DNA from: Lactobacillus sp. CBA3606
GTDB taxonomy: Bacteria; Bacillota; Bacilli; Lactobacillales; Lactobacillaceae
Length of the DNA stretch: 64,000 bases
Direction: 5' to 3'
Assembly: GCF_002970935.1 (NCBI RefSeq)
Contig: NZ_CP027194.1
Span: forward strand, 372,001 to 436,000
Part shown: positions 5,814 to 62,271 of the stretch, piece after piece
How positions within the stretch are numbered: position 1 is the stretch's first letter
Layout of the letters: every line of letters begins with the position of its first letter
Translations under genes and position numbers: made by a program
The notes under the pieces: model-generated
Seen by the model: the letters and a program-made list of their open reading frames with translations, nothing else
What the model was told of the DNA's origin: nothing
The model's database searches: none

Positions 5814-6680
5814 ATGAAAGAAAAGCAAGTTTTTCATATTAATGGGTATATTGGATTAGTCTTAGCTATTTTATTTGTTCTCGGTGGTGGCTGGTTAGTC
5901 TGGTCGGGAAGCACGACTAATCAGTTGGTGACGGTCTTTTTAGGCGCTATTTTAATTATTATTGCGGGTTTTGGTGCAAGCTCGTTAACTATTGTGGGGC
6001 CTAATGAGGCACGGGTGATGACCTTTTTTGGAAAATATATTGGCACAATTCGTGATTCTGGCTTATTTATGACAGTCCCCTTAACGAGTAAGTTTTCAAT
6101 CTCACTAAGAGTACGTAATTTTAACAGTGCCATTTTAAAAGTGAACGATTTACGTGGTAATCCTGTTGAGATTGCGGCTGTTATTGTGTTTAAAGTAGTT
6201 GATACCAGTATGGCCTTGTTTGCAGTTGATGATTATGAACAGTTTGTGCAGATTCAGAGTGAATCGGCTGTGCGCCACGTTGCTTCTGAGTATCCCTATG
6301 ATACCTTTGATGATGACAAGAAGTTAACGTTACGCAGTAATCCAACGGAAGTGTCTGATCGACTAACGGCTGAATTACAGGCACGGTTAACTGTCGCTGG
6401 TGTAGAAATCTTAGAAACACGGTTGACTCATTTGGCCTATGCAACTGAAATTGCCAGTGCCATGTTACAGCGCCAACAATCTTCCGCGATTCTTTCGGCG
6501 CGTAAGGTGATTGTAGAAGGGGCTGTTTCAATTACGGAAGAGACGATTCGGCGCCTAGAGAAGGATACCGGGATGCAATTTTCAGATGATAAGAAATTAC
6601 AATTGATAAATAATATGATGGTCACCATTATTTCGGAGCGGGGTTCACAACCGATTATTAATACTTCGGAGGTTAAATAG
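5814..6680 (+). CDS. SPFH/band 7 (stomatin-prohibitin) membrane protein
   Basis: 288 residues with two hydrophobic segments near the N-terminus (about 12-30 and 36-56), then a band 7 domain starting TIVGPNEARVMTFFGKYIGT. PVEIAAVIVFKVVDT, AVRHVASEYPYDTF and the ELQARLTVAGVEILETRLTHLAYA helix are the usual SPFH features. The C-terminal helix (MLQRQQSSAILSARKVIVEGAV) matches bacterial homologues. These proteins scaffold membrane microdomains; no specific partner is encoded nearby. The ribosome site AAGGGGG is clear. Confidence 0.9.
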   Translation: MKEKQVFHINGYIGLVLAILFVLGGGWLVWSGSTTNQLVTVFLGAILIIIAGFGASSLTIVGPNEARVMTFFGKYIGTIRDSGLFMTVPLTSKFSISLRVRNFNSAILKVNDLRGNPVEIAAVIVFKVVDTSMALFAVDDYEQFVQIQSESAVRHVASEYPYDTFDDDKKLTLRSNPTEVSDRLTAELQARLTVAGVEILETRLTHLAYATEIASAMLQRQQSSAILSARKVIVEGAVSITEETIRRLEKDTGMQFSDDKKLQLINNMMVTIISERGSQPIINTSEVK

Positions 6681-6721
6681 GAATGTTGATGTGACAACGT
6701 TTGTAGCTGTGTTTTTTAAAC

Positions 6722-6755
6722 GCATCACCATTATAAAAATTGGTGATGCATTTTT
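6722..6755 (+). terminator. Terminator after the SPFH gene
   Basis: GCATCACCA and TGGTGATGC form a 9-base stem followed by TTTTT. It marks the left edge of the accessory patch. Confidence 0.8.
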
Positions 6756-6800
6756 GTGGTGAAGTCAGTGGTGAAGAAATCGCAAATTTAATTAAAAATA

Positions 6801-6841
6801 GGGCAGAAATCACCTGATTTTAATCAGGTGAATGAATGCCC
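6801..6841. repeat. Left-end hairpin of the IS605-type element
   Basis: An inner 8-9 base stem CACCTGATT/AATCAGGTG is framed by GGGCA (6801-6805) and TGCCC (6837-6841). Y1 transposases recognise subterminal hairpins of this kind on single-stranded DNA. It could also terminate tnpA transcription. Confidence 0.6.
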
Positions 6842-6846
6842 TAAGC

Positions 6847-7302
6847 TTAACGCCGGGAGGCATTTTTATTTGCCGCTGTCGTTCGTTGATTGTCAATGTA
6901 TCGTTCCACTACTTCTTTACTCATATTTCCGAGTGTACTCATATAGTAACTATGTGACCATAGATGCCCGCCCCAGAATTTTTGCTGTTTTATTTCAGGG
7001 TGTTTCTCGAAAAATAGACGGGCAGAGCCACCTTTGAAAGCCTTAACAACGTTGGTCGGTGCATATTTTGGCTTAAAGCTAATAAGAAGGTGGACATGGT
7101 CTGGCATAACTTCCATATGTTCGATAGTGACCTCATTGAGATCAGCGATTCGCTGAAGGATAATTTCCATATCATTTACTAATTGTGGTGTTGAAAATGC
7201 AGTATTGCGGTACTTAGTGACCCATATTAAGTGGAAATGGAAGTTGTAAACGTAGTTACGTTCATAAATAGTATCATCTAAGTGGTTGTTGTTTTTATTC
7301 AT
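6847..7302 (-). CDS. tnpA: IS200/IS605 Y1 (HUH) transposase TnpA
   Basis: Single-strand DNA transposase. The family start is NYVYNFHFHLIWVTKYR, the metal-binding HUH pair is in MPDHVHLLISF, and the catalytic Tyr helix lies in SHSYYMSTLGNMSKEVVERYIDNQ. At about 151 residues it is complete. I placed the start at MNKNNNH (7302) because an AAGGAG ribosome site lies directly upstream; the longer frame to 7359 has none. No disabling change is visible. Confidence 0.93.
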   Translation of the reverse strand: MNKNNNHLDDTIYERNYVYNFHFHLIWVTKYRNTAFSTPQLVNDMEIILQRIADLNEVTIEHMEVMPDHVHLLISFKPKYAPTNVVKAFKGGSARLFFEKHPEIKQQKFWGGHLWSHSYYMSTLGNMSKEVVERYIDNQRTTAANKNASRR

Positions 7303-7400
7303 CTGTTTGCTCCTTAAAGCGTATGCTAATAGTATTAATACGTATAATTCTATGCTCATGTGTTATACTCAGTATAACACAATTAAGGAGGTGAATTCGT

Positions 7401-8657
7401 ATGAGTAAAACGATGGCCCAGCTACCCTATCATTATGGTGTCAAAGTGCGTGTTTTCCCAGCCACTGAACAAAAACGGTTGATCAAACACAATAGTGATG
7501 CGAGTCGCTTTATCTATAACGAAATGAATGGTATGAATCGGGAATTACTTATGTTACGTCAAGTTAAAATTCCTATCACCATGGTTCAGCAACGTATTCA
7601 GACATTAGAACAGCGTCTTAAGTCACCAGCAACTGGCATTTCAAACATCCATGGCTGGCTTAATGATCATGATCTAGATAGCCTGATGAAGGCTAATGCT
7701 ATCAAAAACTATCGTGCTGCTTGGAACCTTTTTCGTAAGGTTCATCAGTCAGGCACACCAGTTTTCCATAAAAAGCAAACTGAGCAAAAATATCAAACTT
7801 CCTGCCTGTATGCTAGTAAGGTAGGTAATCCTGGTATGGCTAATGGTAGTGTTCGATTACTCGACCAGCAGCATATACAATTACCAAAATTGGGTACCTT
7901 ACGGTTCAAGGGAATGCCTACTAAATTACTTAATCGGCAAGATGATGTGCGGATTGGAACGACAACTATCTCAATGGATGCCACTGGTCGGTACTATATC
8001 TCGATGCAACTGGCTTCTGAACGACCGTTTGTCAGTGAAGTAAAGAATAAAACAGCCATAGCTATTGGCATTGACTTAAATATTGATAATTTTCTAACTG
8101 ATTCTAACGGCAACATTGTTGCCAATCCACATTACTATCGTTCCATTAAGGGCAAACTTGCAAAAGCCCAGCGCAAGCTATCGCGCCGTGCACTTCGTGC
8201 GAAGAAGGAACACCGTCCTTTACGCAATGCTAAAAATTATCAAAAACAACGGGCAATTGTCGCAACTATCCAACGTAAAGTAGCCAATCGACGTAAAAAC
8301 TTCTTGCATCTCGTCTCGACAACACTAATCAAGAACCACGATTTGGTTGTCGCTGAAGAGTTGCGGAGTAAGAACATGCTACGAAATCACGCCCTGGCGA
8401 TGAGTATTGCCGATGTAGGTTGGCGCACGTTTTTGGGTATGTTGTCCTATAAAGCTGATCTGTACGGGCAGAAATTTATTACCGTGAACCCTCGAAACAC
8501 GACGCAAACGTGTGCTGATTGTGGCTACTTAATGCATGGTGATGAAAAGCTAACTCTTGCAGATCGTGAATGGACGTGCCCACAGTGTGGCGTCCATCAC
8601 ATTCGAGATTGGAATGCCGCTAAGAATATTTTGGCAAAAGGCTCAACAAGCGCCTAG
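7401..8657 (+). CDS. tnpB: TnpB RNA-guided nuclease (IS605 OrfB)
   Basis: RuvC-like nuclease of the TnpB/Fanzor/Cas12 lineage, 418 residues. The N-terminal helix-turn-helix region begins HYGVKVRVFPATEQKRLI. The RuvC triad is present: Asp225 in AIGIDLN, Glu319 in VVAEELRSKNM and Asp403 in IRDWNAAKN. The zinc ribbon CADCG..CPQCG lies between the last two. The known role is cutting the donor site with a guide transcribed from the element's 3' end, which favours retention of the element. A ribosome site (AAGGAGGTG) precedes the ATG. Confidence 0.94.
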   Translation: MSKTMAQLPYHYGVKVRVFPATEQKRLIKHNSDASRFIYNEMNGMNRELLMLRQVKIPITMVQQRIQTLEQRLKSPATGISNIHGWLNDHDLDSLMKANAIKNYRAAWNLFRKVHQSGTPVFHKKQTEQKYQTSCLYASKVGNPGMANGSVRLLDQQHIQLPKLGTLRFKGMPTKLLNRQDDVRIGTTTISMDATGRYYISMQLASERPFVSEVKNKTAIAIGIDLNIDNFLTDSNGNIVANPHYYRSIKGKLAKAQRKLSRRALRAKKEHRPLRNAKNYQKQRAIVATIQRKVANRRKNFLHLVSTTLIKNHDLVVAEELRSKNMLRNHALAMSIADVGWRTFLGMLSYKADLYGQKFITVNPRNTTQTCADCGYLMHGDEKLTLADREWTCPQCGVHHIRDWNAAKNILAKGSTSA

Positions 8658-8816
8658 CTTGCTTGTCCGTCTGGCAACCTGCGGACAGTAAAGGCTTTGG
8701 TAATTAGCACGTAAGACCTGTTTACAGGCAACCGCTGTATCTAAGCAAATTGTGGTCATTGTACCGTTAGGTGCGATTCTCACAAGCTTCCGACTTTAGT
8801 CGGGAGTGGTTGACAC
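8640..8816 (+). ncRNA. Predicted TnpB guide RNA (reRNA/omega RNA) region
   Basis: The stretch from the tnpB stop to the right end contains stems TGTCCG/CGGACA (8664-8687), CCTGTTTACAGG (8717-8728) and the terminal CCGACTTTAGTCGG hairpin. In characterised TnpB systems this place encodes the reRNA scaffold, with the guide being the flank just beyond the right end, here the bases after about 8816. This is inferred from family knowledge and visible hairpins only. Confidence 0.45.
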
Positions 8817-8879
8817 AGATCTAGTAGTGCATCGTAGGCACGATTGGTTAGAGGAATCTTTTGAATACTTTTTGTCGTT

Positions 8880-9614
8880 TTGGGCGTATCTAGCATCATA
8901 TCTTTTAGTCCATTGTTGTTTACCTTAGCTGTTATTCACTTATCAAACAGTCCGTATAAGTTAAATCGAACTGCTAACGATCCAATTGATGGTAATCTGA
9001 TTAAATTAAAGCCTGATGCTACTTATGCGGAATGGGAAAAGGCTTTAGTCTTGAAGCACGGTAAGTACGAAGTTGACAAGAGTAACCAGCGGACTAATAG
9101 CTATCCTGCTGACAAAGCATTTTATGATGAAATGTCTGCATTCATTAGCGATAAACATATGCCAACCTTCAATAAGTTTCAAGAAATGAAGTATAATGAT
9201 GATAGAGATTGGCGTAATTTGCATCTTGACTATTTACGTCAGAATAAGCTTAACAATCATTTAGAGTTACAATTACCTAATTTAAATAATTTGGATTTAC
9301 CAATTGCCAAGTTCACTAAGTATTTGTTCAATCCTGGCAGTGAGGTTGGATGGCCTAAGGGTCAGTTAATTACTAATAAGCTTGGAATTGGAACGAACAA
9401 TTATCAAGAACTACGAAAGATTATTTTAGATGCTGCCGTGAAGTATCCAGCGATATCCAAAGGTGACTTGGGGCACGGTGAACGTTATCAACAAAATATC
9501 ATTGTTTATGATAAGGATAACCATGCAACCAATATGTTAGTTGCGTGGATTGATGATCATGGTTCTACACGGATGACAACTACTTTTATCGAGGAGGCTA
9601 AGGATGGAAATTAA
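8880..9614 (+). pseudogene. Truncated phage minor head (MuF-like) protein with C-terminal DUF6883-like domain
   Basis: The frame opens at a TTG beside the insertion element, with a TGA in frame at 8862. It recovers phage-like sequence from about residue 30 (NDPIDGNLIKLKPDATYAEW). It appears to be the 3' part of a head morphogenesis gene whose 5' part is gone. The last 100 residues (IAKFTKYLFNPGSEVGW, a GERYQQNIIVYDK strand, LVAWIDDHGSTRMTTTFI) fit the DUF6883 fold found at the ends of phage MuF proteins and polymorphic toxins. It overlaps the next gene by 11 bases. The domain name is from pattern recognition, not a search. Confidence 0.55.
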
Positions 9615-9786
9615 AGAGTTTGATGATGTTGTGTTGAAAGATGGACGTACAGCGGGAATCGTTGAAGTTCTCGATAGTACGCACTTCTTAGCTGATGTTG
9701 GCGATGGACCGAGTGACTGGGAAAATATTGCAATTGAATTAAAAGATATTGAACGAGTTTACAATCGTCCAAGTGATTTCAAGTAG
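9604..9786 (+). CDS. DUF4926-like small protein, possible immunity partner
   Basis: 60 residues, acidic, starting MEIKEFDDVVLKDGRTAGIV and containing EVLDSTHFLADVGD. The pattern (x-D-V-V-L, glycine, then strand-rich segments ending with a DIERV helix) resembles DUF4926, a family often placed beside toxin-like genes. The ATG lies inside the end of the upstream frame (11-base overlap), with a GAGGAGG ribosome site, so the two are translationally coupled. This arrangement suggests a toxin-immunity pair on a prophage head gene; the activity is inference. Confidence 0.5.
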   Translation: MEIKEFDDVVLKDGRTAGIVEVLDSTHFLADVGDGPSDWENIAIELKDIERVYNRPSDFK

Positions 9787-9988
9787 AGCTATCGGCAATT
9801 ATATTACTGATGGCTTTTTAATTTGACCTGAGCATGTCACTAAACTACTCAAACTAAATAGCATGCGTGGGTCTGATAAGGATGCCACGATCAATTTAGC
9901 ACAATTTGTGGGGCCTTCGGGCAATGCACGGGGTGCTTTTTTTGTGGGCTGATTTATCAGGAATGCGTGGGTATGGAGGAACTTAATT
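9787..9988 (+). other. Phage intergenic remnant with weak terminator
   Basis: No gene is visible. GCATGCGTGGGT (about 9861) and GAATGCGTGGGT (about 9961) are near-direct repeats, and GCACGGGGTGC followed by a run of T (about 9936-9952) looks like a small phage terminator before the scaffold gene. Confidence 0.4.
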
Positions 9989-10659
9989 ATGAAAAAACTA
10001 CTGAAACTAAAGATGAATTTACAAATGTTTGCCGAAGGTGGCGATGAAGCCAGTGGTGATGGTGCTAACGCTGCTGATGTTGTGGCCGATAATGGTAATG
10101 TTGATTAAAATGATAGCAAGGACGGCGACGCTAAGGATGGTAAGCCAGTTACGCCATTTAAATCGTTTGCCAACGAGAAAGAATGGCAGTCGAGTGTTGA
10201 TAAGCTAATCCAAACAGCTATTAAAACACATGACGAAAAGCCAGCCAGCACAGCTGAACAGAAAAAGGACTATACAAAATGTCAGACCTCGAAAAAGCTC
10301 AGTATGACCGTGATAATTTTCAGACTAAGCTAGCCGAAGCAGAACGTCACGGCAAGATTATTGAAAATCGGGCTAAAATGACTGAACAGCTCGGCGCTGA
10401 TGACTTGCCTACTGGTTTTATTGCTATGTTTGGTGAAAGAACACTTGCTGATGATGGGGTTGAAGAAGCCTATAAAGCTATCAAAGAGGTATTTAGGGAT
10501 AATTTGCAAAAGGCAATTGACAAACGAATCTCGGTCTCGGCGACAACCTCGCCTACTGACACTAGTGATGCTAAAAAGTCAGAAGGAGCCACAGTAGCTG
10601 AACAATTGAATGGTTCACAACAAGGTAGTTCGTCCAGCTTATGGGTTCCTTTAGCATAA
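9989..10659 (+). pseudogene. Broken phage capsid scaffold protein gene
   Basis: It starts with a good ribosome site (GGAGG) and MKKLLKLKMNLQMFAEGG; NLQMFA is the usual start of Siphoviridae scaffold proteins. The frame stops at a TAA ending at 10108 (NGNVD*), continues in the same frame as acidic NDSKDGDAKDGKPVTPF, and then shifts frame between about 10255 and 10278. The remaining frame (SDLEKAQYDRDNFQTKLAEAERHGKI, coiled coil, to LWVPLA) ends at 10659. One stop plus one frameshift means no functional scaffold is made. Confidence 0.8.
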
Positions 10660-35230: not shown

Positions 35231-35620
35231 TGTAAATTCTGGGTAATCGCGGTCGGCTTATGTCGGCTGAGGAAGGTCCATGCCCGCACAAGCTGCGATG
35301 CTTGTAGTGTTCGTGCTCGGTGAAAAAATAAGCTGGGGAACCGATTTTATCGGTTACGGCGGGAAAAACGGCTAAGGCGCAAGCTATGCCCGAGTATCCC
35401 TGAAAAGTGCCACAGTGACGATACTTAGCTGGAAACGGCTAAGTTGGAACGCGGTAAACCCCTCGAGCGGGCAACCCAAACTACGGTAGGGGCGCTTCAC
35501 ATAAGTAAATGAACTAAATGTGGGGGGAGATCCTTGTGATCTCGAGATAGATGATTGCCGCCTAATCAACAGCCACCTGTGCTTTGGTTAGGTACAAAAC
35601 ATGGCCTACAGGAATTTACA
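35231..35620 (+). ncRNA. rnpB: RNase P RNA (type B)
   Basis: About 390 bases between gpsB and the methyltransferase gene, the usual Firmicutes place. TGTAAATTCT at the 5' end pairs with GGAATTTACA at the 3' end (P1). GAGGAAGGTCCATGC near the start and the AGAT..ATTGCC..ACAGAA-like 3' core (GATAGATGATTGCC, CAAAACATGGCC) are the conserved P4/CR features. Type B is inferred from the Firmicutes context and the long P5.1/P10 insertions. A small minus-strand open frame inside it is not a gene. Confidence 0.93.
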
Positions 35621-56549: not shown

Positions 56550-56999
56550 ATGTGGATTTATTGGGGTCTAATGTTTATCTTGGTCATCATTGACCAAATT
56601 ATAAAATCAGCAGTGGTACGTCAAATTGCTTTAGGCGCGACCCAAACGGTGGTACCTGGCTTATTTTCATTAACTAATTTACATAATAGTGGTGCAGCTT
56701 GGAGTATTCTGCAAGGTAAAATGGGCTTTTTCTACTTGATTTCCATCGTCGCGTTAGGTGTCATGGTCTATTTACTATGGCGCTTACGGGAACATCGACT
56801 GTATGAATTTGGGATTGTATTAATGATTGCCGGGACTTTAGGGAATTTTATCGACCGGGTCCGTATCGGTTACGTGGTTGATATGTTCCAACTGGATTTC
56901 ATTAATTTTCCAATCTTTAATTTTGCGGATTCATGTTTGACCGTGGGGGTCATTCTTATTTTGATTGCCGTTTTGCGGGATGATACGTTCGATAAATAG
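56550..56999 (+). CDS. lspA: Lipoprotein signal peptidase
   Basis: 149-residue aspartic membrane protease (signal peptidase II) that removes lipoprotein signals. Four helices; the catalytic Asp pair lies in TLGNFIDRVRIGYVVDMF and FPIFNFADSCLTVG. NLHNSGAAWSIL is the substrate loop. Its neighbours rluD and pyrR repeat the Firmicutes order lspA-rluD-pyrR. GTGAGG lies 12 bases before the ATG. Confidence 0.96.
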   Translation: MWIYWGLMFILVIIDQIIKSAVVRQIALGATQTVVPGLFSLTNLHNSGAAWSILQGKMGFFYLISIVALGVMVYLLWRLREHRLYEFGIVLMIAGTLGNFIDRVRIGYVVDMFQLDFINFPIFNFADSCLTVGVILILIAVLRDDTFDK

Positions 57000-57019: not shown

Positions 57020-57943
57020 TTGGCAGGGGCAACGACGGAACAACGATTTAAGGTTAGTGACGAAACGGGTCGGTTAGATAAAGTCTTGGCGGGATTACAA
57101 GCTATTTGGTCACGTTCACAAATTGACAAACTAATTAAGACGGCACAAGTGACCGTCAATGGTCAGCAGCAACCTAGCAAGTATCAGGTTCAAGCTGGTG
57201 ACCAGATCGTGGTGGCGGCCCAGACCGTCCAGACGACTGAATTGACACCAGAGAATATCCCGTTAGACATTGTCTATGAAGATGATGATGTGATTGTGGT
57301 CAATAAGCCGCAAGGGATGGTGGTGCATCCGGCACCGGGACATCCAGATCAAACCTTGGTGAATGCCTTGCTTTATCATAGTCCCCTGTCCACGATTAAT
57401 GGCGAATTTCGGCCAGGCATTGTTCATCGTATCGATAAGGACACGTCAGGCCTACTAATGGTTGCTAAAAACGATCAAGCTCATCATGCGTTGGCGGCCC
57501 AGTTAAAAGCTAAAAAAAATTTGCGAGAATACTGGGCATTAGTCCATGGTGTTATTAAAGAAACGACCGGGACAATTGATGCGCCACTTGGGCGATCACC
57601 TAAGGATCGAAAAAAACAAGCGATTGTCAAGGATGGTCGGCAGGCAGTGACCCATTTTGAGGTATTAAAACGTTATCAACACTACACGTTGATTGCTTGT
57701 CGACTAGAGACCGGACGAACCCATCAAATTCGGGTGCATTTACAATCTATCGGTCATCCCATTGTTGGTGACCCATTATACGGCCCGAAAAAAACAATTA
57801 CTGGGCATGGCCAATTTCTGCATGCTCGGACGTTAGGGTTTGAGCACCCCGTAACGGGCCAATTGATGCAATTTGAAGCACCGTTACCAGCCATTTTTAC
57901 GGCGACTTTGGCGAAGCTTGACAAAACGGATGCAACTCATTAA
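57020..57943 (+). CDS. rluD: RluD-family 23S rRNA pseudouridine synthase
   Basis: 307 residues. An N-terminal S4 RNA-binding domain (RLDKVLAGLQAIWSRSQIDKLI) precedes the synthase core: the catalytic Asp is in GIVHRIDKDTSGLLMVAKN, then CRLETGRTHQIRVH and GDPLYGP. It converts uridines in helix 69 of 23S rRNA if it is RluD proper; the YlyB group of Firmicutes is close. The start is a TTG with AAGGAG upstream. Confidence 0.93.
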   Translation: MAGATTEQRFKVSDETGRLDKVLAGLQAIWSRSQIDKLIKTAQVTVNGQQQPSKYQVQAGDQIVVAAQTVQTTELTPENIPLDIVYEDDDVIVVNKPQGMVVHPAPGHPDQTLVNALLYHSPLSTINGEFRPGIVHRIDKDTSGLLMVAKNDQAHHALAAQLKAKKNLREYWALVHGVIKETTGTIDAPLGRSPKDRKKQAIVKDGRQAVTHFEVLKRYQHYTLIACRLETGRTHQIRVHLQSIGHPIVGDPLYGPKKTITGHGQFLHARTLGFEHPVTGQLMQFEAPLPAIFTATLAKLDKTDATH

Positions 57944-57958
57944 TCTAACAGTAAAGAT

Positions 57959-58052
57959 AGTCCTTTAATCCGGCCCAGTGAGACTGAAAGGCAAACGGGA
58001 ACCATTACCTTTGACGGTCGTGACAAGTTTAATGTCCGACCGTCTTTATTTT
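57959..58052 (+). promoter_or_regulatory. PyrR-responsive attenuator leader
   Basis: The 125-base gap before pyrR has a binding-loop-like segment (TCCTTTAATCCGGCCCAG and GTGAGACTGAAAGG, 57961-57991), close to the PyrR consensus with its GAGRCU core. A terminator follows: GACGGTCG (58013-58020) pairs with CGACCGTC (58037-58044), then TTTATTTT. With UMP, PyrR should hold the leader in the terminating form. The leader lies inside the lspA-rluD transcript, so pyrR and the car genes are controlled by attenuation. Confidence 0.75.
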
Positions 58053-58059
58053 AAATTAG

Positions 58060-58593
<534 letters not shown>

Positions 58594-58624: not shown

Positions 58625-59707
58625 ATGGCAGACCGCTATTTGATTCTTGAAGACGGCAGTGCTTATCTTGGTGAGGGCTTTGGTTCACCAGCGGTTTCTA
58701 CCGGTGAAATTGTGCTAAACACTAGCATGACGGGCTATCAAGAAATTATTACAAATCAAATTTATCATAATCAAATTATTGCTTTTACCCAACCAACGAT
58801 TGGGAGCTATGGGATTAATCACGATAGTTATGAATCAATTTTACCCACGGTTAAAGGTGTGGTGGTGCGCGATGTAGCAAGTATTTCAACCAATCGTCAG
58901 CGCCGCTGGTCACTTGATCAGTATTTAAAGCAACAAAACATTCCAGGAATTAGTCATATTGATACACGGCATCTTGCCAAGCAATTGCGTGCTAGTGGCC
59001 CCATGAAGGCCAGTATTGTGGATGTTGCAGACGCACATGCTTTTGACCAATTAGGCGCCACCGTTTTAACTAATCAGCAGGTTGCCGCTGTCGCAACCCC
59101 GAAGCCGTTTCCTAATCCTGGAACCGGTCTAAATGTGGTGGTAGTTGATTTTGGGTTGAAGCATGGTATTTTGCGAGAGTTAAGTAAGCGTGCTTGCAAT
59201 GTCACCGTTTTACCGTATACGGCCACGATGGAAGAAATCATTAATTTAGATCCCGATGGGGTCATTTTATCGACGGGTCCCGGGAAACCGCAAGACTTAC
59301 CCGACAGTGTCTTAACGATGATTAAAAATGTCCAGACCCGGGTGCCGTTGTTTGCCATTGGCTTAGGTCATGAATTATTTGCGATGGCTAACGGCGCCAA
59401 AATTATGAAGCTTTCACCAGAACATCACGGTGCTAACCATCCAATTCGCGAAGTGATTACGAATCAAATTATCTATGCTTCGCAAGGACAAGGATTTACG
59501 GTTAATCCAGAAACGGTGGATCGTGACAAATTAATTACGACATTTGTAGATTTGATTGATGGTACGATTCAGGGGTTACGTTATCGTGACTTCCCGGCGT
59601 TTTCAATCCAGTTCTTTCCAGATGGTGCCCCAGGTCCAACTGATGCGCGTGATATTTTTGATGAATTCGTTGAATCAATGCAACAAGCAAGGGGGCCGGT
59701 CTGGTGA
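58625..59707 (+). CDS. carA: Carbamoyl-phosphate-synthase small-subunit-like protein, glutaminase triad lost
   Basis: 360 residues, full length. The N-terminal half (LILEDGSAYLGEGFG, NTSMTGYQEIITNQIYHNQI, SHIDTRHLAKQLR) is a normal CarA domain, followed by a class I glutaminase fold. In normal CarA the catalytic Cys is in GICLGHQ and the His-Glu pair in YHPEA. Here the segments read AIGLGHELF (Gly at 246) and FFPDGAPGP (Phe331, Asp333). GPGKP replaces GPGDP. Glutamine hydrolysis is therefore not expected. Four bases overlap carB. Confidence 0.85.
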   Translation: MADRYLILEDGSAYLGEGFGSPAVSTGEIVLNTSMTGYQEIITNQIYHNQIIAFTQPTIGSYGINHDSYESILPTVKGVVVRDVASISTNRQRRWSLDQYLKQQNIPGISHIDTRHLAKQLRASGPMKASIVDVADAHAFDQLGATVLTNQQVAAVATPKPFPNPGTGLNVVVVDFGLKHGILRELSKRACNVTVLPYTATMEEIINLDPDGVILSTGPGKPQDLPDSVLTMIKNVQTRVPLFAIGLGHELFAMANGAKIMKLSPEHHGANHPIREVITNQIIYASQGQGFTVNPETVDRDKLITTFVDLIDGTIQGLRYRDFPAFSIQFFPDGAPGPTDARDIFDEFVESMQQARGPVW

Positions 59708-62271
59708 ATATAGCTAGTCAAACATTACAAAAAGTTTTAATTATTGGAGCCGGCCACAATGATATTGGTCGTGAGGGCCAACATGATGCGGCGGTTACTC
59801 AAATTGGTCAGGCTATTCATAAATTAGGGATTGCAGTTATTTTAGTTGATAACAATCCATTTTCAGTAGCTGCTGAAAACAACTTTGCGGACAAAGTTTA
59901 TCTAGAGCCATTAACGGTCGCCGCTTTGACTAAAATTATTGAAGCTGAGCAACCGACCGGCCTGATAGCGTCGCTAGGTGGTATTCAAGGGGTCAATTTA
60001 GTGCAAGGCTTGATTCGCAATAATGTTTTAAAAAATAACCAGGTTCGATTGTTACAGTGGGATACTGAAACGATTGATATGGTGGTTAATCCAGCACTAA
60101 TGAGCAATCGATTACGAGCTTTAGGTCAACCGGTGATTGCGTCACAAGTTGTGGCGAGTCAAGTTGAGGCTGACCAAGTGGTTAAAGCTGTGGGATTCCC
60201 GGTGATTGTTAAAGCAGTTGCGCCCCGAATCGAAACTAGTCGGCAATTGTGTGAGGATGAAGATGATTTAGCCGTAGCCTTATCGCGCGGCTTTAAACTT
60301 TCGGCGGTTAAGCAATGTATTGTGGAACAAAGTATCGTGGGCTATAAAGAACTTGAATTTGTTGGCATGCGCGATGTGAAAGATACTGCGCTACTAGTCA
60401 GTGGTATGGAAAATTTTGATCCAGTTGGGATTCATTCTGCCGACTCCATTATTTTTGCGCCCACTCAAACGATTACTGATCAGGAGTATCAGCAATTTCG
60501 GTCAGCAACGTTAAAAATTATGCGGGCGTTACATTTAGTTGGTGCTTGCCATATTCAGTTTGCGTTAGATCCGACGACCCAACACTATTATGTGATTAAG
60601 GTGACGCCTTACTTTGATCGCACTATGGCGTTAGCAGCGCGGGCAACGGGTTATCCGATTGCGATGATTGCTGCTAGTTTAATGGTGGGAGTTAGTTTGG
60701 CAGAAGTGAAATTACCGGTTAATTACCGGAAGCAAACCGCATTAATTGAACCGGTTCTTGATCACATTGTTTGTCGAATTCCAGTCTGGCCGTTTAACGT
60801 CTTAAAAAAAGTCAGTCACCAATTGGACACGGTCATGGAGTCAACGGGTTCAGTGATTGGGATTGGCCGTTCCACGGAGGAAGCTTTATTAAAAGGCCTA
60901 CGCTCGACTGATGAATCACGCTATCACGTCATCGCCAATCGACCACAGAATTATTCTGAAGGTGAATTGATTCAGCGGTTGATTCATCCACAAGCTGGCC
61001 GAATGTTAGTCTTATTGGAAGCCCTCAATCGGGGGTATCAAATAGATGAACTAGCTGAATTGACGAAGATCGATGCGTTTTATTTTTATAAATTACGGCA
61101 TATTATCGAAATTGAAGAAGCTTTACGTGCACACCCACTAGATGTACATGCACTGGGTCGGGCCAAGTATTTTGGCTTCACGGATGAAGATGCTGCCGCC
61201 GCTTGGGACGTTGCCCCTAGTAAGGTCAGTCACTTTGCCATTGAAAATGAAATTCAGCCGACGTTTAAAGAAGTTGAGCCAACTGCCGGCGAGTTTACGG
61301 AACAGACCAATACGTATTATTCAACGTATGAATTCGATAATGAAAGTCAGCCCATTACGGAACGGAGTGCGGTGGTGATTGGTTCCGGTGCTAATCGTAT
61401 TGGGACAAATCATGCCAATGACTATCTGGTTTCACAACTCCTATTCTATTTGAAAAAAGCTGATTATCGGCCCATTCTAATTAATGCAAATCCTAATAGT
61501 GTGGCGATGACGCCGCAATTAGCATCTAAACGGTATATTGAACCGAAACAGGTTTCAGATATATTGAATGTGTTAGCGATTGAAAAACCAAGTGTTATTT
61601 TTACCACATATCATGATTACCGGTTGGGACAACAGTTAACGCAACTTGGTTATCATGTGATTCAAATTAATAATAGCTTACCGCGTGAACAGATTAAGAC
61701 TAATGATTCGCCGGCCGTTGAGGTGATTACGGATGGTGAATCAGTCATGATCTTTGGCATTAGTGAGATTATTGCGGGCAATAATTTACGGACCAATGTG
61801 CACGGAGCCATCTCGGTTTTTCCAATTCAAGATAAGGCTGAAAATCAGGCAATCGATGCCTTACGTGCTGAAATTGAGCAGCGGGTGTTGACTTTCGGGG
61901 TGCCCGGGTTATATACCGTTCGGTTAACGATTGTTGATGAAGCGTTGCGTTTAGCAACAGTGGAACCAATGAGTTTAGCAACCATTGCCTTGATTAGTAA
62001 GGCCAGCGGTTCGAGTGTCCCGCGCTTGTTATTGCACGTTAAGCTGGGTGAGCCGTTAGCTGATGTGATGTACGATTATCCTGATACAACGCATCTTAAA
62101 ACGATTTTTGTGCAAGCCAATACATTTCCTTATAATCAGTTACAAATATATGATGATACGGAAATTACCGGTGAACCAGGGCATGCAACTGGGACGGTAA
62201 TTGCCCATGGGGAGACGTTAAAGGCAGCATTAGTGGCCTTAAACGCTGGTAATGAGAGTACTGATTTCTAG
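59704..62271 (+). CDS. carB: Carbamoyl-phosphate-synthase large-subunit-like protein, degenerate and shortened
   Basis: 855 residues against about 1060-1075 in normal CarB. Homology runs throughout, but active-site features are lost. The nucleotide loop reads IIGAGHNDIGREGQHD, the ATP-grasp loop is VKAVAPRIETSRQ instead of MGGTGGG, and the metal/ATP residues Glu299, Asn301 and Arg303 (E. coli numbering coincides) are Lys, Thr and Tyr; Gln285 is kept. The second half lacks most of its ATP-grasp region (after VIQINN) and reads VEPMSLATIAL where VNPR is expected. The C-terminal allosteric domain is absent. The frame is intact. Confidence 0.82.
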   Translation: MNIASQTLQKVLIIGAGHNDIGREGQHDAAVTQIGQAIHKLGIAVILVDNNPFSVAAENNFADKVYLEPLTVAALTKIIEAEQPTGLIASLGGIQGVNLVQGLIRNNVLKNNQVRLLQWDTETIDMVVNPALMSNRLRALGQPVIASQVVASQVEADQVVKAVGFPVIVKAVAPRIETSRQLCEDEDDLAVALSRGFKLSAVKQCIVEQSIVGYKELEFVGMRDVKDTALLVSGMENFDPVGIHSADSIIFAPTQTITDQEYQQFRSATLKIMRALHLVGACHIQFALDPTTQHYYVIKVTPYFDRTMALAARATGYPIAMIAASLMVGVSLAEVKLPVNYRKQTALIEPVLDHIVCRIPVWPFNVLKKVSHQLDTVMESTGSVIGIGRSTEEALLKGLRSTDESRYHVIANRPQNYSEGELIQRLIHPQAGRMLVLLEALNRGYQIDELAELTKIDAFYFYKLRHIIEIEEALRAHPLDVHALGRAKYFGFTDEDAAAAWDVAPSKVSHFAIENEIQPTFKEVEPTAGEFTEQTNTYYSTYEFDNESQPITERSAVVIGSGANRIGTNHANDYLVSQLLFYLKKADYRPILINANPNSVAMTPQLASKRYIEPKQVSDILNVLAIEKPSVIFTTYHDYRLGQQLTQLGYHVIQINNSLPREQIKTNDSPAVEVITDGESVMIFGISEIIAGNNLRTNVHGAISVFPIQDKAENQAIDALRAEIEQRVLTFGVPGLYTVRLTIVDEALRLATVEPMSLATIALISKASGSSVPRLLLHVKLGEPLADVMYDYPDTTHLKTIFVQANTFPYNQLQIYDDTEITGEPGHATGTVIAHGETLKAALVALNAGNESTDF

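What the first reader, a model, noticed from the sequence alone, without database searches (positions are those of the whole stretch)
58625..62271. PyrR-linked carbamoyl phosphate synthase pair is a full-length pseudo-enzyme
Both subunits keep uninterrupted frames, normal gene overlap and a PyrR leader, yet the chemistry is gone. The small subunit has Gly246 for the catalytic Cys, Phe331 for the His and Asp333 for the Glu of the glutaminase triad. The large subunit has Lys299/Thr301/Tyr303 where Glu/Asn/Arg bind metal and ATP, no ATP-grasp glycine loop, a shortened second ATP-grasp half and no allosteric domain. Random decay would give stops, so selection appears to keep the fold for another task. 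In L. plantarum a second PyrR (PyrR2) links pyr genes to inorganic carbon. A dead CPS, whose normal substrate is bicarbonate, next to a PyrR is a natural candidate sensor or partner. That last step is hypothesis.
Basis: partly seen in the sequence, partly recalled or inferred. Interest (0 to 1): 0.85.

Follow-up and report, generated by a model that had tools for sequence, protein, structure and literature searches.

The report
Dead carbamoyl-phosphate synthase kept by selection
Beside a pyrimidine-sensing regulator gene, this bacterium keeps both halves of an enzyme whose active sites are ruined, yet its close relatives preserve the broken version very closely, which suggests that it now does another job than making carbamoyl phosphate.

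Summary
Confirmed, and wider than reported. Window 58625-62271 encodes a CPS pair (CarA*, CarB*) with every catalytic site lost: C269G, H353F and Gln-pocket changes in CarA*; E299K, N301T, R303Y and no ATP loop in CarB*, whose second ATP-grasp is gutted and allosteric domain absent. In 21 of 21 Lactiplantibacillus genomes these residues are nearly invariant, and CarA* is under stronger purifying selection than the live pyr-operon CarA. Two CPS pairs that look live lie elsewhere in the genome. A dead pair occurs in at least one genome of 34 of 40 Lactobacillaceae genera sampled, nearly always behind rluD. In other Lactobacillales families, and in six Lactobacillaceae genomes checked, that site holds an intact pyr operon, so the pair is its relict. 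In 18 of 64 dead-pair genomes of a chosen panel neither PyrB nor a CarB over the family cut-offs was found. PyrR usually stays with the pair, and predicted PyrR sites in such genomes precede nucleobase-uptake genes. Best reading: a non-catalytic CPS-shaped complex working with PyrR in pyrimidine acquisition. Pseudo-enzyme status is near certain; the PyrR partnership is inferred (about 0.45); bicarbonate sensing is untested. Asp333 is no loss: live CarA1 has Asp there too.

The parts
57958..57994 (+). Variant PyrR-binding-loop-like element in the leader of pyrR2
   Evidence: Rfam RF00515 26.6 bits, below gathering 54; near-invariant in the 21 leaders printed; 12 of the 21 aligned; not more stable than shuffles on its own
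58013..58052 (+). Intrinsic terminator (12-bp stem, U tract), likely attenuator of the pyrR2-carA*-carB* operon
   Evidence: -19 kcal/mol, z -5.2, 0 of 200 shuffles as stable; stem kept in 12 leaders with changes on both sides at 2 pairs
58069..58593 (+). pyrR (second PyrR of the genome, PyrR2 type), intact
   Evidence: NF003548 268.8 bits over cut-off 218; of 65 sites invariant in 23 live-operon PyrRs, 57 are kept at >=0.9 in 44 pseudo-locus PyrRs
58625..59707 (+). carA*: CPS small subunit, glutaminase dead (I46, G246, E250, G288, Q289, F331)
   Evidence: AF2 pLDDT 92.8, top PDB match E. coli CarA, TM 0.94
59704..62271 (+). carB*: CPS large subunit, both ATP-grasp sites dead, N-lobe of the second ATP-grasp and allosteric domain missing
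   Evidence: AF2 pLDDT 88.6, top PDB match E. coli CarB, TM 0.90
56550..56999 (+). lspA (context: marks the ancestral pyr-operon site)
57020..57943 (+). rluD-type pseudouridine synthase (context)

Best explanation
Shown: the pair is the relict of the ancestral Lactobacillales pyr operon at its original site (lspA-rluD-pyrR-pyrP-pyrB-pyrC-carA-carB). The biosynthetic genes are gone from the site; pyrR and carAB stayed, and both CPS subunits lost their catalytic residues while keeping fold and strong purifying selection. Inferred: CarA* and CarB* still assemble as a CPS-like heterodimer and act as a non-catalytic regulatory complex of pyrimidine acquisition, made in one attenuated operon with PyrR and most likely modulating PyrR-dependent attenuation (of uptake/salvage genes, and of the live pyr operon where there is one). 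The Cys-to-Gly change fits release from catalysis with selection for fold stability at the strained nucleophile elbow (recalled structural argument). The ligand sensed, if any, is unknown; the remodelled glutaminase pocket of CarA*, the better conserved subunit, is the first candidate. Loss of catalysis under selection I hold at about 0.95, the PyrR/pyrimidine regulatory role at about 0.45.
For: Dead residues in 21 of 21 genus genomes, all frames open. carA* mean pairwise identity 0.956 against 0.901 for live CarA1; 431 syn: 3 nonsyn codon differences in 5 chosen close pairs against 288:16 for live CarA in 4 of these pairs. In 46 derived CarA*: C269G 46, Q273E 43, H272 kept 46, H353 kept 0; formerly invariant sites fixed to new residues (S204G, R291H, E331D, E338Q) argue for a new constraint, not decay. 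Dead pair in at least one genome of 34 of 40 genera. Live operon at the same site in other families and in six family genomes G031, G032, G045, G050, G051, G140. 18 of 64 dead-pair panel genomes show no PyrB and no CarB over the cut-offs. Of those 18, 17 were tested for PyrR: 15 have it next to the pair, 1 elsewhere (G047), 1 none found (G037, 87% complete). PyrR sites at E <= 0.001 in 12 of 16 of them tested, 7 over the gathering score; of four downstream loci checked by Pfam, three hold nucleobase permeases and one a phosphonate-type ABC binding protein. Folds intact.
Against: The sampled loci of g3, g6, g18, g28 and g38 have no pyrR beside carA*, though PyrR is found elsewhere in those tested except G037. 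PyrR is nearly universal (strong match in 63 of 65 panel genomes), so co-occurrence alone is weak. CarB* diverges fast (about 32-43% between genera in the derived group), unusual for a tightly constrained partner. At least two of the PyrR-site matches lie at the dead locus itself (G063, G047), and 5 of the 12 genomes with a match have none over the gathering score. Four PyrB-positive dead-pair genomes (G191, G112, G048, G055) have no CarB over the cut-off, so their source of carbamoyl phosphate is unexplained. No physical interaction, ligand or phenotype was measured.
Confidence: 0.45

Rival explanations
1. The pair has a task independent of PyrR (scaffold, other sensor, protein partner outside pyrimidine metabolism) and only shares its operon by descent.
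For: The sampled loci of g3, g6, g18, g28 and g38 lack an adjacent pyrR yet keep the pair; one genome with the pair and no PyrR found, G037, 87% complete.
Against: pyrR stays beside the pair in 15 of 17 tested genomes without PyrB and CarB over the cut-offs; shared attenuated leader in the genus.
Confidence: 0.33
2. The dead subunits regulate the live CPS by forming mixed oligomers (dominant-negative or stabilising subunit).
For: CPS pairs that look live exist in the same genome; fold and central oligomerisation domain are kept.
Against: 22 of the 71 panel genomes have no CarB over the cut-off, and all 22 are among the 64 that keep a dead pair.
Confidence: 0.1
3. Bicarbonate sensor for PyrR2, a special case of the best explanation.
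For: Kept in 46 derived CarB*: E215 42, H243 43, Q285 35, R306 33. L. plantarum PyrR2 is cited as controlling the pyr operon by inorganic carbon (passages of PMC3582564).
Against: N283 kept in 0 of 46, R303 in 0 of 46, E299 replaced by K/R in 46 of 46, which speaks against metal-ATP-carboxyphosphate chemistry. Binding of the anion is untested.
Confidence: 0.12
4. Dying pseudogene pair after transfer of CPS activity to a second operon.
For: Catalytic residues lost; a few copies have a split or short CarB (L176, L232, L242).
Against: Open frames in 21 of 21 genus genomes; 431:3 syn:nonsyn in carA* and 1213:53 in carB* in five close pairs; wide retention.
Confidence: 0.02
5. Residual or new enzyme chemistry in the remodelled pocket.
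For: Fixed E273 with kept H272 and D355 in the CarA* pocket.
Against: No nucleophile at 269, metal site charge-reversed, second ATP-grasp gutted.
Confidence: 0.05

Closest known systems
Glutamine-hydrolysing carbamoyl phosphate synthetase (E. coli CarAB; CarAB1 of the same genome)
   Same: Fold of both subunits (TM 0.94 and 0.90), gene order; 53% (CarA) and 41% (CarB) identity to the pyr-operon pair
   Different: Glutaminase and both ATP-grasp sites lost, second ATP-grasp shortened, no allosteric domain
Human CPS1 (5dot, 5dou), whose glutaminase-like domain lacks the catalytic Cys (recalled)
   Same: Dead glutaminase domain kept as a structural part; fold match
   Different: CPS1 keeps both synthetase sites and makes carbamoyl phosphate (recalled); here these sites are lost too
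Lactobacillales pyr operon lspA-rluD-pyrR-pyrP-pyrB-pyrC-carA-carB-...
   Same: Same chromosomal site and gene order; CarA* falls among the CarA of these operons, not with arginine-type CarA
   Different: pyrB, pyrC and downstream genes gone from the site; carAB dead
L. plantarum PyrR2 (lp_1782), regulator linked to inorganic carbon
   Same: Probably the same locus, by elimination: the other PyrR heads the live pyr operon
   Different: The linked dead CPS was not seen in the passages and listings that I saw; the 2006 paper itself is not held and was not read

Membership tests
Functional glutamine-hydrolysing CPS | Cys-His-Glu/Asp glutaminase triad in CarA | tested here: not met
   C269G and H353F in 21 of 21 genus genomes; Asp at 355 also in live CarA1
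Functional glutamine-hydrolysing CPS | Carboxyphosphate ATP-grasp: R129, R169, Gly loop, E299/N301, R303 | tested here: not met
   P, K, I/E, K/T, Y in the window
Functional glutamine-hydrolysing CPS | Second (carbamoyl phosphate) ATP-grasp and allosteric domain | tested here: not met
   N-lobe missing, Q829R E841T N843E R845M, nothing aligned after E. coli ~940
Functional glutamine-hydrolysing CPS | NCBIfam large-subunit score over cut-off | tested here: not met
   TIGR01369 616.6 against 1027 bits; the small subunit TIGR01368 does pass, 363.5 against 307.35
Functional glutamine-hydrolysing CPS | CPS fold of both subunits | tested here: met
   AF2 models match 1cs0_B and 1jdb_B
Functional glutamine-hydrolysing CPS | Synthesis of carbamoyl phosphate | not testable with these tools
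   needs an enzyme assay
Pseudoenzyme | Catalytic residues lost, fold kept, purifying selection | tested here: met
Pseudoenzyme | Demonstrated non-catalytic function | not testable with these tools
PyrR attenuator leader (Rfam RF00515) | Covariance-model score over gathering | tested here: not met
   26.6 against 54 bits; the pyr operon of the same genome passes with 56.3
PyrR attenuator leader (Rfam RF00515) | Conserved PyrR loop followed by a terminator before the gene | tested here: met

The most novel reading that the evidence does not exclude
PyrR, CarA* and CarB* form a conserved non-catalytic sensing module in which an ancient CPS, stripped of all chemistry, serves as the metabolite-sensing partner of an RNA-binding attenuation protein and lets lactobacilli tune pyrimidine uptake (and, where present, synthesis) to an input such as inorganic carbon or glutamine. 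Part of the CO2 phenotype ascribed to PyrR2 in L. plantarum would then belong to the dead CPS. By extension, the live CPS of the ancestral operon already had this second role.
Probability: 0.13. Interest if true: 0.9.

Novelty: new variant of a known kind. Interest (0 to 1): 0.74.

Why it matters
Pseudo-enzymes are known, but I know of no CPS in which both subunits are dead and yet conserved (recalled; searches of the held library returned no paper). Such pairs, found in at least one genome of 34 of 40 Lactobacillaceae genera sampled, are presumably annotated as carbamoyl phosphate synthase (not checked), which would mislead metabolic models about arginine and pyrimidine prototrophy. Retention in genomes without PyrB and CarB over the cut-offs makes a second, non-catalytic role of CPS directly testable in harmless laboratory lactobacilli, and bears on the open question of how L. 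plantarum couples pyr expression to inorganic carbon.

Tried and rejected
Genus-limited origin: rejected. The CarB* C-terminal query (397 genomes, listing capped) showed close relatives only in the genus, but named loci of Pediococcus and Weissella and CarA* searches showed the wider pair; CarB* had simply diverged.

Repeated independent origin of the dead state within the family: not established. The quick CarA tree needs 5 changes of the dead label (3 forced by starred branches), but an AU test does not reject one clade of the 37 dead family rows left after leaving out L153 (p 0.468). Long branches are involved. Outside the family, L275 and L276 carry a dead CarA as well, also C269G.

dN/dS over all 210 genus pairs was of little use because dS is saturated or high in most; codon counts of close pairs were used instead. 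Some live CarA frames there carry a longer N-terminal start choice (388 aa). The short-pattern scan for PyrR loops in the own genome equalled its control. The binding-loop segment alone is no more stable than shuffles. The plasmid search matched 64 records, all under 60% identity, 10 listed; the best (Limosilactobacillus fermentum, 34%) was not checked by residues. PyrR co-occurrence is a weak test because PyrR is near-universal. For G049 (g30) the second CarAB (C1:623253-627441) was not checked by residues; its CarB scores over the cut-off.
Full report
What was checked. Pfam finds the preATP-grasp, first ATP-grasp and oligomerisation domains; TIGR01369 scores 616.6 against a cut-off of 1027.

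Genome context. The genome (2.56 Mb) is a Lactiplantibacillus, judged by the named loci whose contigs match those of its genus-mates. It has two further CarAB pairs that look live by residues, one in the pyr operon (CarA 53% identical) and one 37% identical. The pyr-operon leader passes the Rfam PyrR model (56.3 bits). The window operon starts with a variant PyrR loop (26.6 bits) and a strong terminator, seen in the genus leaders and aligned in 12 of 21.

Selection in the genus. lspA-rluD-pyrR-carA*-carB* is syntenic in 21 of 21 genomes. Mean pairwise identities: CarA* 0.956, CarA1 0.901, CarB* 0.853, CarB1 0.903, PyrR2 0.875, PyrR1 0.953. In five close pairs that I chose, carA* has 431 synonymous and 3 non-synonymous codon differences and carB* 1213 and 53; in four of these pairs live carA has 288 and 16 and live carB 886 and 30. 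So the dead small subunit is held more tightly than the live one, the dead large subunit somewhat less.

Beyond the genus. Named loci from four Pediococcus species and Weissella oryzae have rluD-pyrR-carA*-carB* and the same CarA* substitutions S47I, C269G, Q273E, N311G, H312Q, H353F at 63-70% identity. Searches of 397 family genomes with a Pediococcus CarA* (listings capped) and fetched regions let me score CarA in 132 loci: 51 have C269 and H353, 81 do not. Position 269 is Gly in 79 of 81; the two with Cys are the G053 locus counted twice (H353L, E355N). With the genus, 34 of the 40 family genera among the 397 genomes have at least one genome with a dead pair. Nearly all lie behind rluD; exceptions are G048 (L222), where other genes stand before pyrR, and G053, where the contig ends. 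In the other six genera one genome each was followed: G031, G032, G045, G050 and G051 (g12, g13, g26, g31, g32) have a CarAB that looks live behind rluD, pyrR and pyrB at this site; G049 (g30) has rluD, no strong PyrR match, and its two CarAB far from rluD. G140 of g34 also has the live operon there.

Origin. In other Lactobacillales families the site holds lspA-rluD-pyrR-(pyrP)-pyrB-pyrC-carA-carB and more, live (L259-L268 and L274). Some dead loci keep an extra gene between pyrR and carA*: a uracil-type permease in L224 (Pfam), L245 and L246 (by similarity), and an ORF of that size in L232 and L240. The pair is therefore the remnant of that operon. The CarA tree puts the derived dead copies in one clade (SH-aLRT 100, 25 rows) and several others apart, but one origin is not rejected (p 0.468).

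Residues. In 46 derived copies G269 is in 46, E273 43, H272 46, K202 45, D355 44 and H353 0; in CarB* E299 became K/R in 46, R303 is kept in 0 and N283 in 0, while E215 (42), H243 (43), Q285 (35) and R306 (33) remain mostly. CarA* keeps on average 54-82% of live-invariant sites per 60-residue block; CarB* 22-64% up to E. coli residue 660 and 0-26% after it. AlphaFold gives confident CPS folds for both. Which of these residues contact Gln, ATP, metal or bicarbonate in E. coli is recalled, not from a call.

Function. In a panel of 71 genomes, chosen by me and including single-copy genomes on purpose, 64 have a dead pair; 18 of these show no PyrB and no CarB over the cut-offs, and 4 more (G191, G112, G048, G055) show PyrB but no CarB over the cut-off. 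Other enzymes of the pathway were not searched. So the pair is not merely an accessory of a live CPS. Of the 18, 17 were tested for PyrR: 15 have it beside the pair, G047 elsewhere, G037 (87% complete) none found. PyrR sites at E <= 0.001 were found in 12 of 16 of them tested, in 7 over the gathering score; some matches lie at the dead locus itself (G063, G047). Of four downstream loci checked by Pfam, the genes are a xanthine/uracil permease (L281), a nucleoside deoxyribosyltransferase followed by a cytosine/purine/uracil permease (L287), another such permease (L307) and a phosphonate-type ABC binding protein (L303); other downstream genes were judged only by eye from their first residues. 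I infer a three-gene PyrR-CarA*-CarB* module serving pyrimidine acquisition. Against it stand lineages without adjacent pyrR and the near-universality of PyrR.

Literature. Passages of PMC3582564 say that PyrR1 and PyrR2 of L. [quoted passage not shown] a table passage of PMC7911632 lists pyrR2 as lp_1782. The original 2006 paper is not held; from recall, its pyrR2 deletion gave a high-CO2-requiring phenotype. If that deletion was polar on the dead pair, part of the phenotype may belong to the pair: a hypothesis only. Searches returned no paper; searches (3 papers; 20 of 23 listed; 2; 20 of 152 listed; 8 of 4,121 listed) showed none that by title or abstract start describes a dead CPS in lactobacilli. 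The library is open-access only.

Noticed in passing
L275 (G399, another family of the order), 6055-10495: pyrR-pyrB followed by a dead CarA (C269G, H353Q) and a CarB of only 579 aa: a dead CPS outside Lactobacillaceae, still beside pyrR and pyrB.
   Followed up: partly
L276 (G405, another family of the order): A pyr operon lspA-rluD-pyrR-pyrB-pyrC-carA-carB with further genes behind it, whose CarA (C269G, H353N) and full-length CarB look dead.
   Followed up: partly
L153/L249 (G053): CPS next to a uracil-permease gene that keeps Cys269 but has H353L and E355N and a CarB with E299A, N301K and a ruined second site; it is the only CarB over the cut-off in that genome, which does have PyrB.
   Followed up: partly
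G191, G112, G048, G055: PyrB over the cut-off but no CarB over the cut-off: the source of carbamoyl phosphate is unexplained.
   Followed up: no
G380:C1:852223-855360 and G049:C1:715884-719021: High-scoring CarB matches with an in-frame TAG, possibly decaying pyr-operon copies.
   Followed up: no
window 57958-57994: PyrR loop variant in which the canonical stem is disturbed (an extra C and a C-A opposition by my reading), conserved in nearly all 21 genus leaders; possibly a different PyrR specificity.
   Followed up: partly
plasmid record CP033372.1 of Limosilactobacillus fermentum, 594061-596474: A 34% match over 93% of CarB* in two pieces; may be another dead CarB, not checked.
   Followed up: no
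window 35235-35613: RNase P RNA, bacterial class B, 335 bits; ordinary.
   Followed up: no
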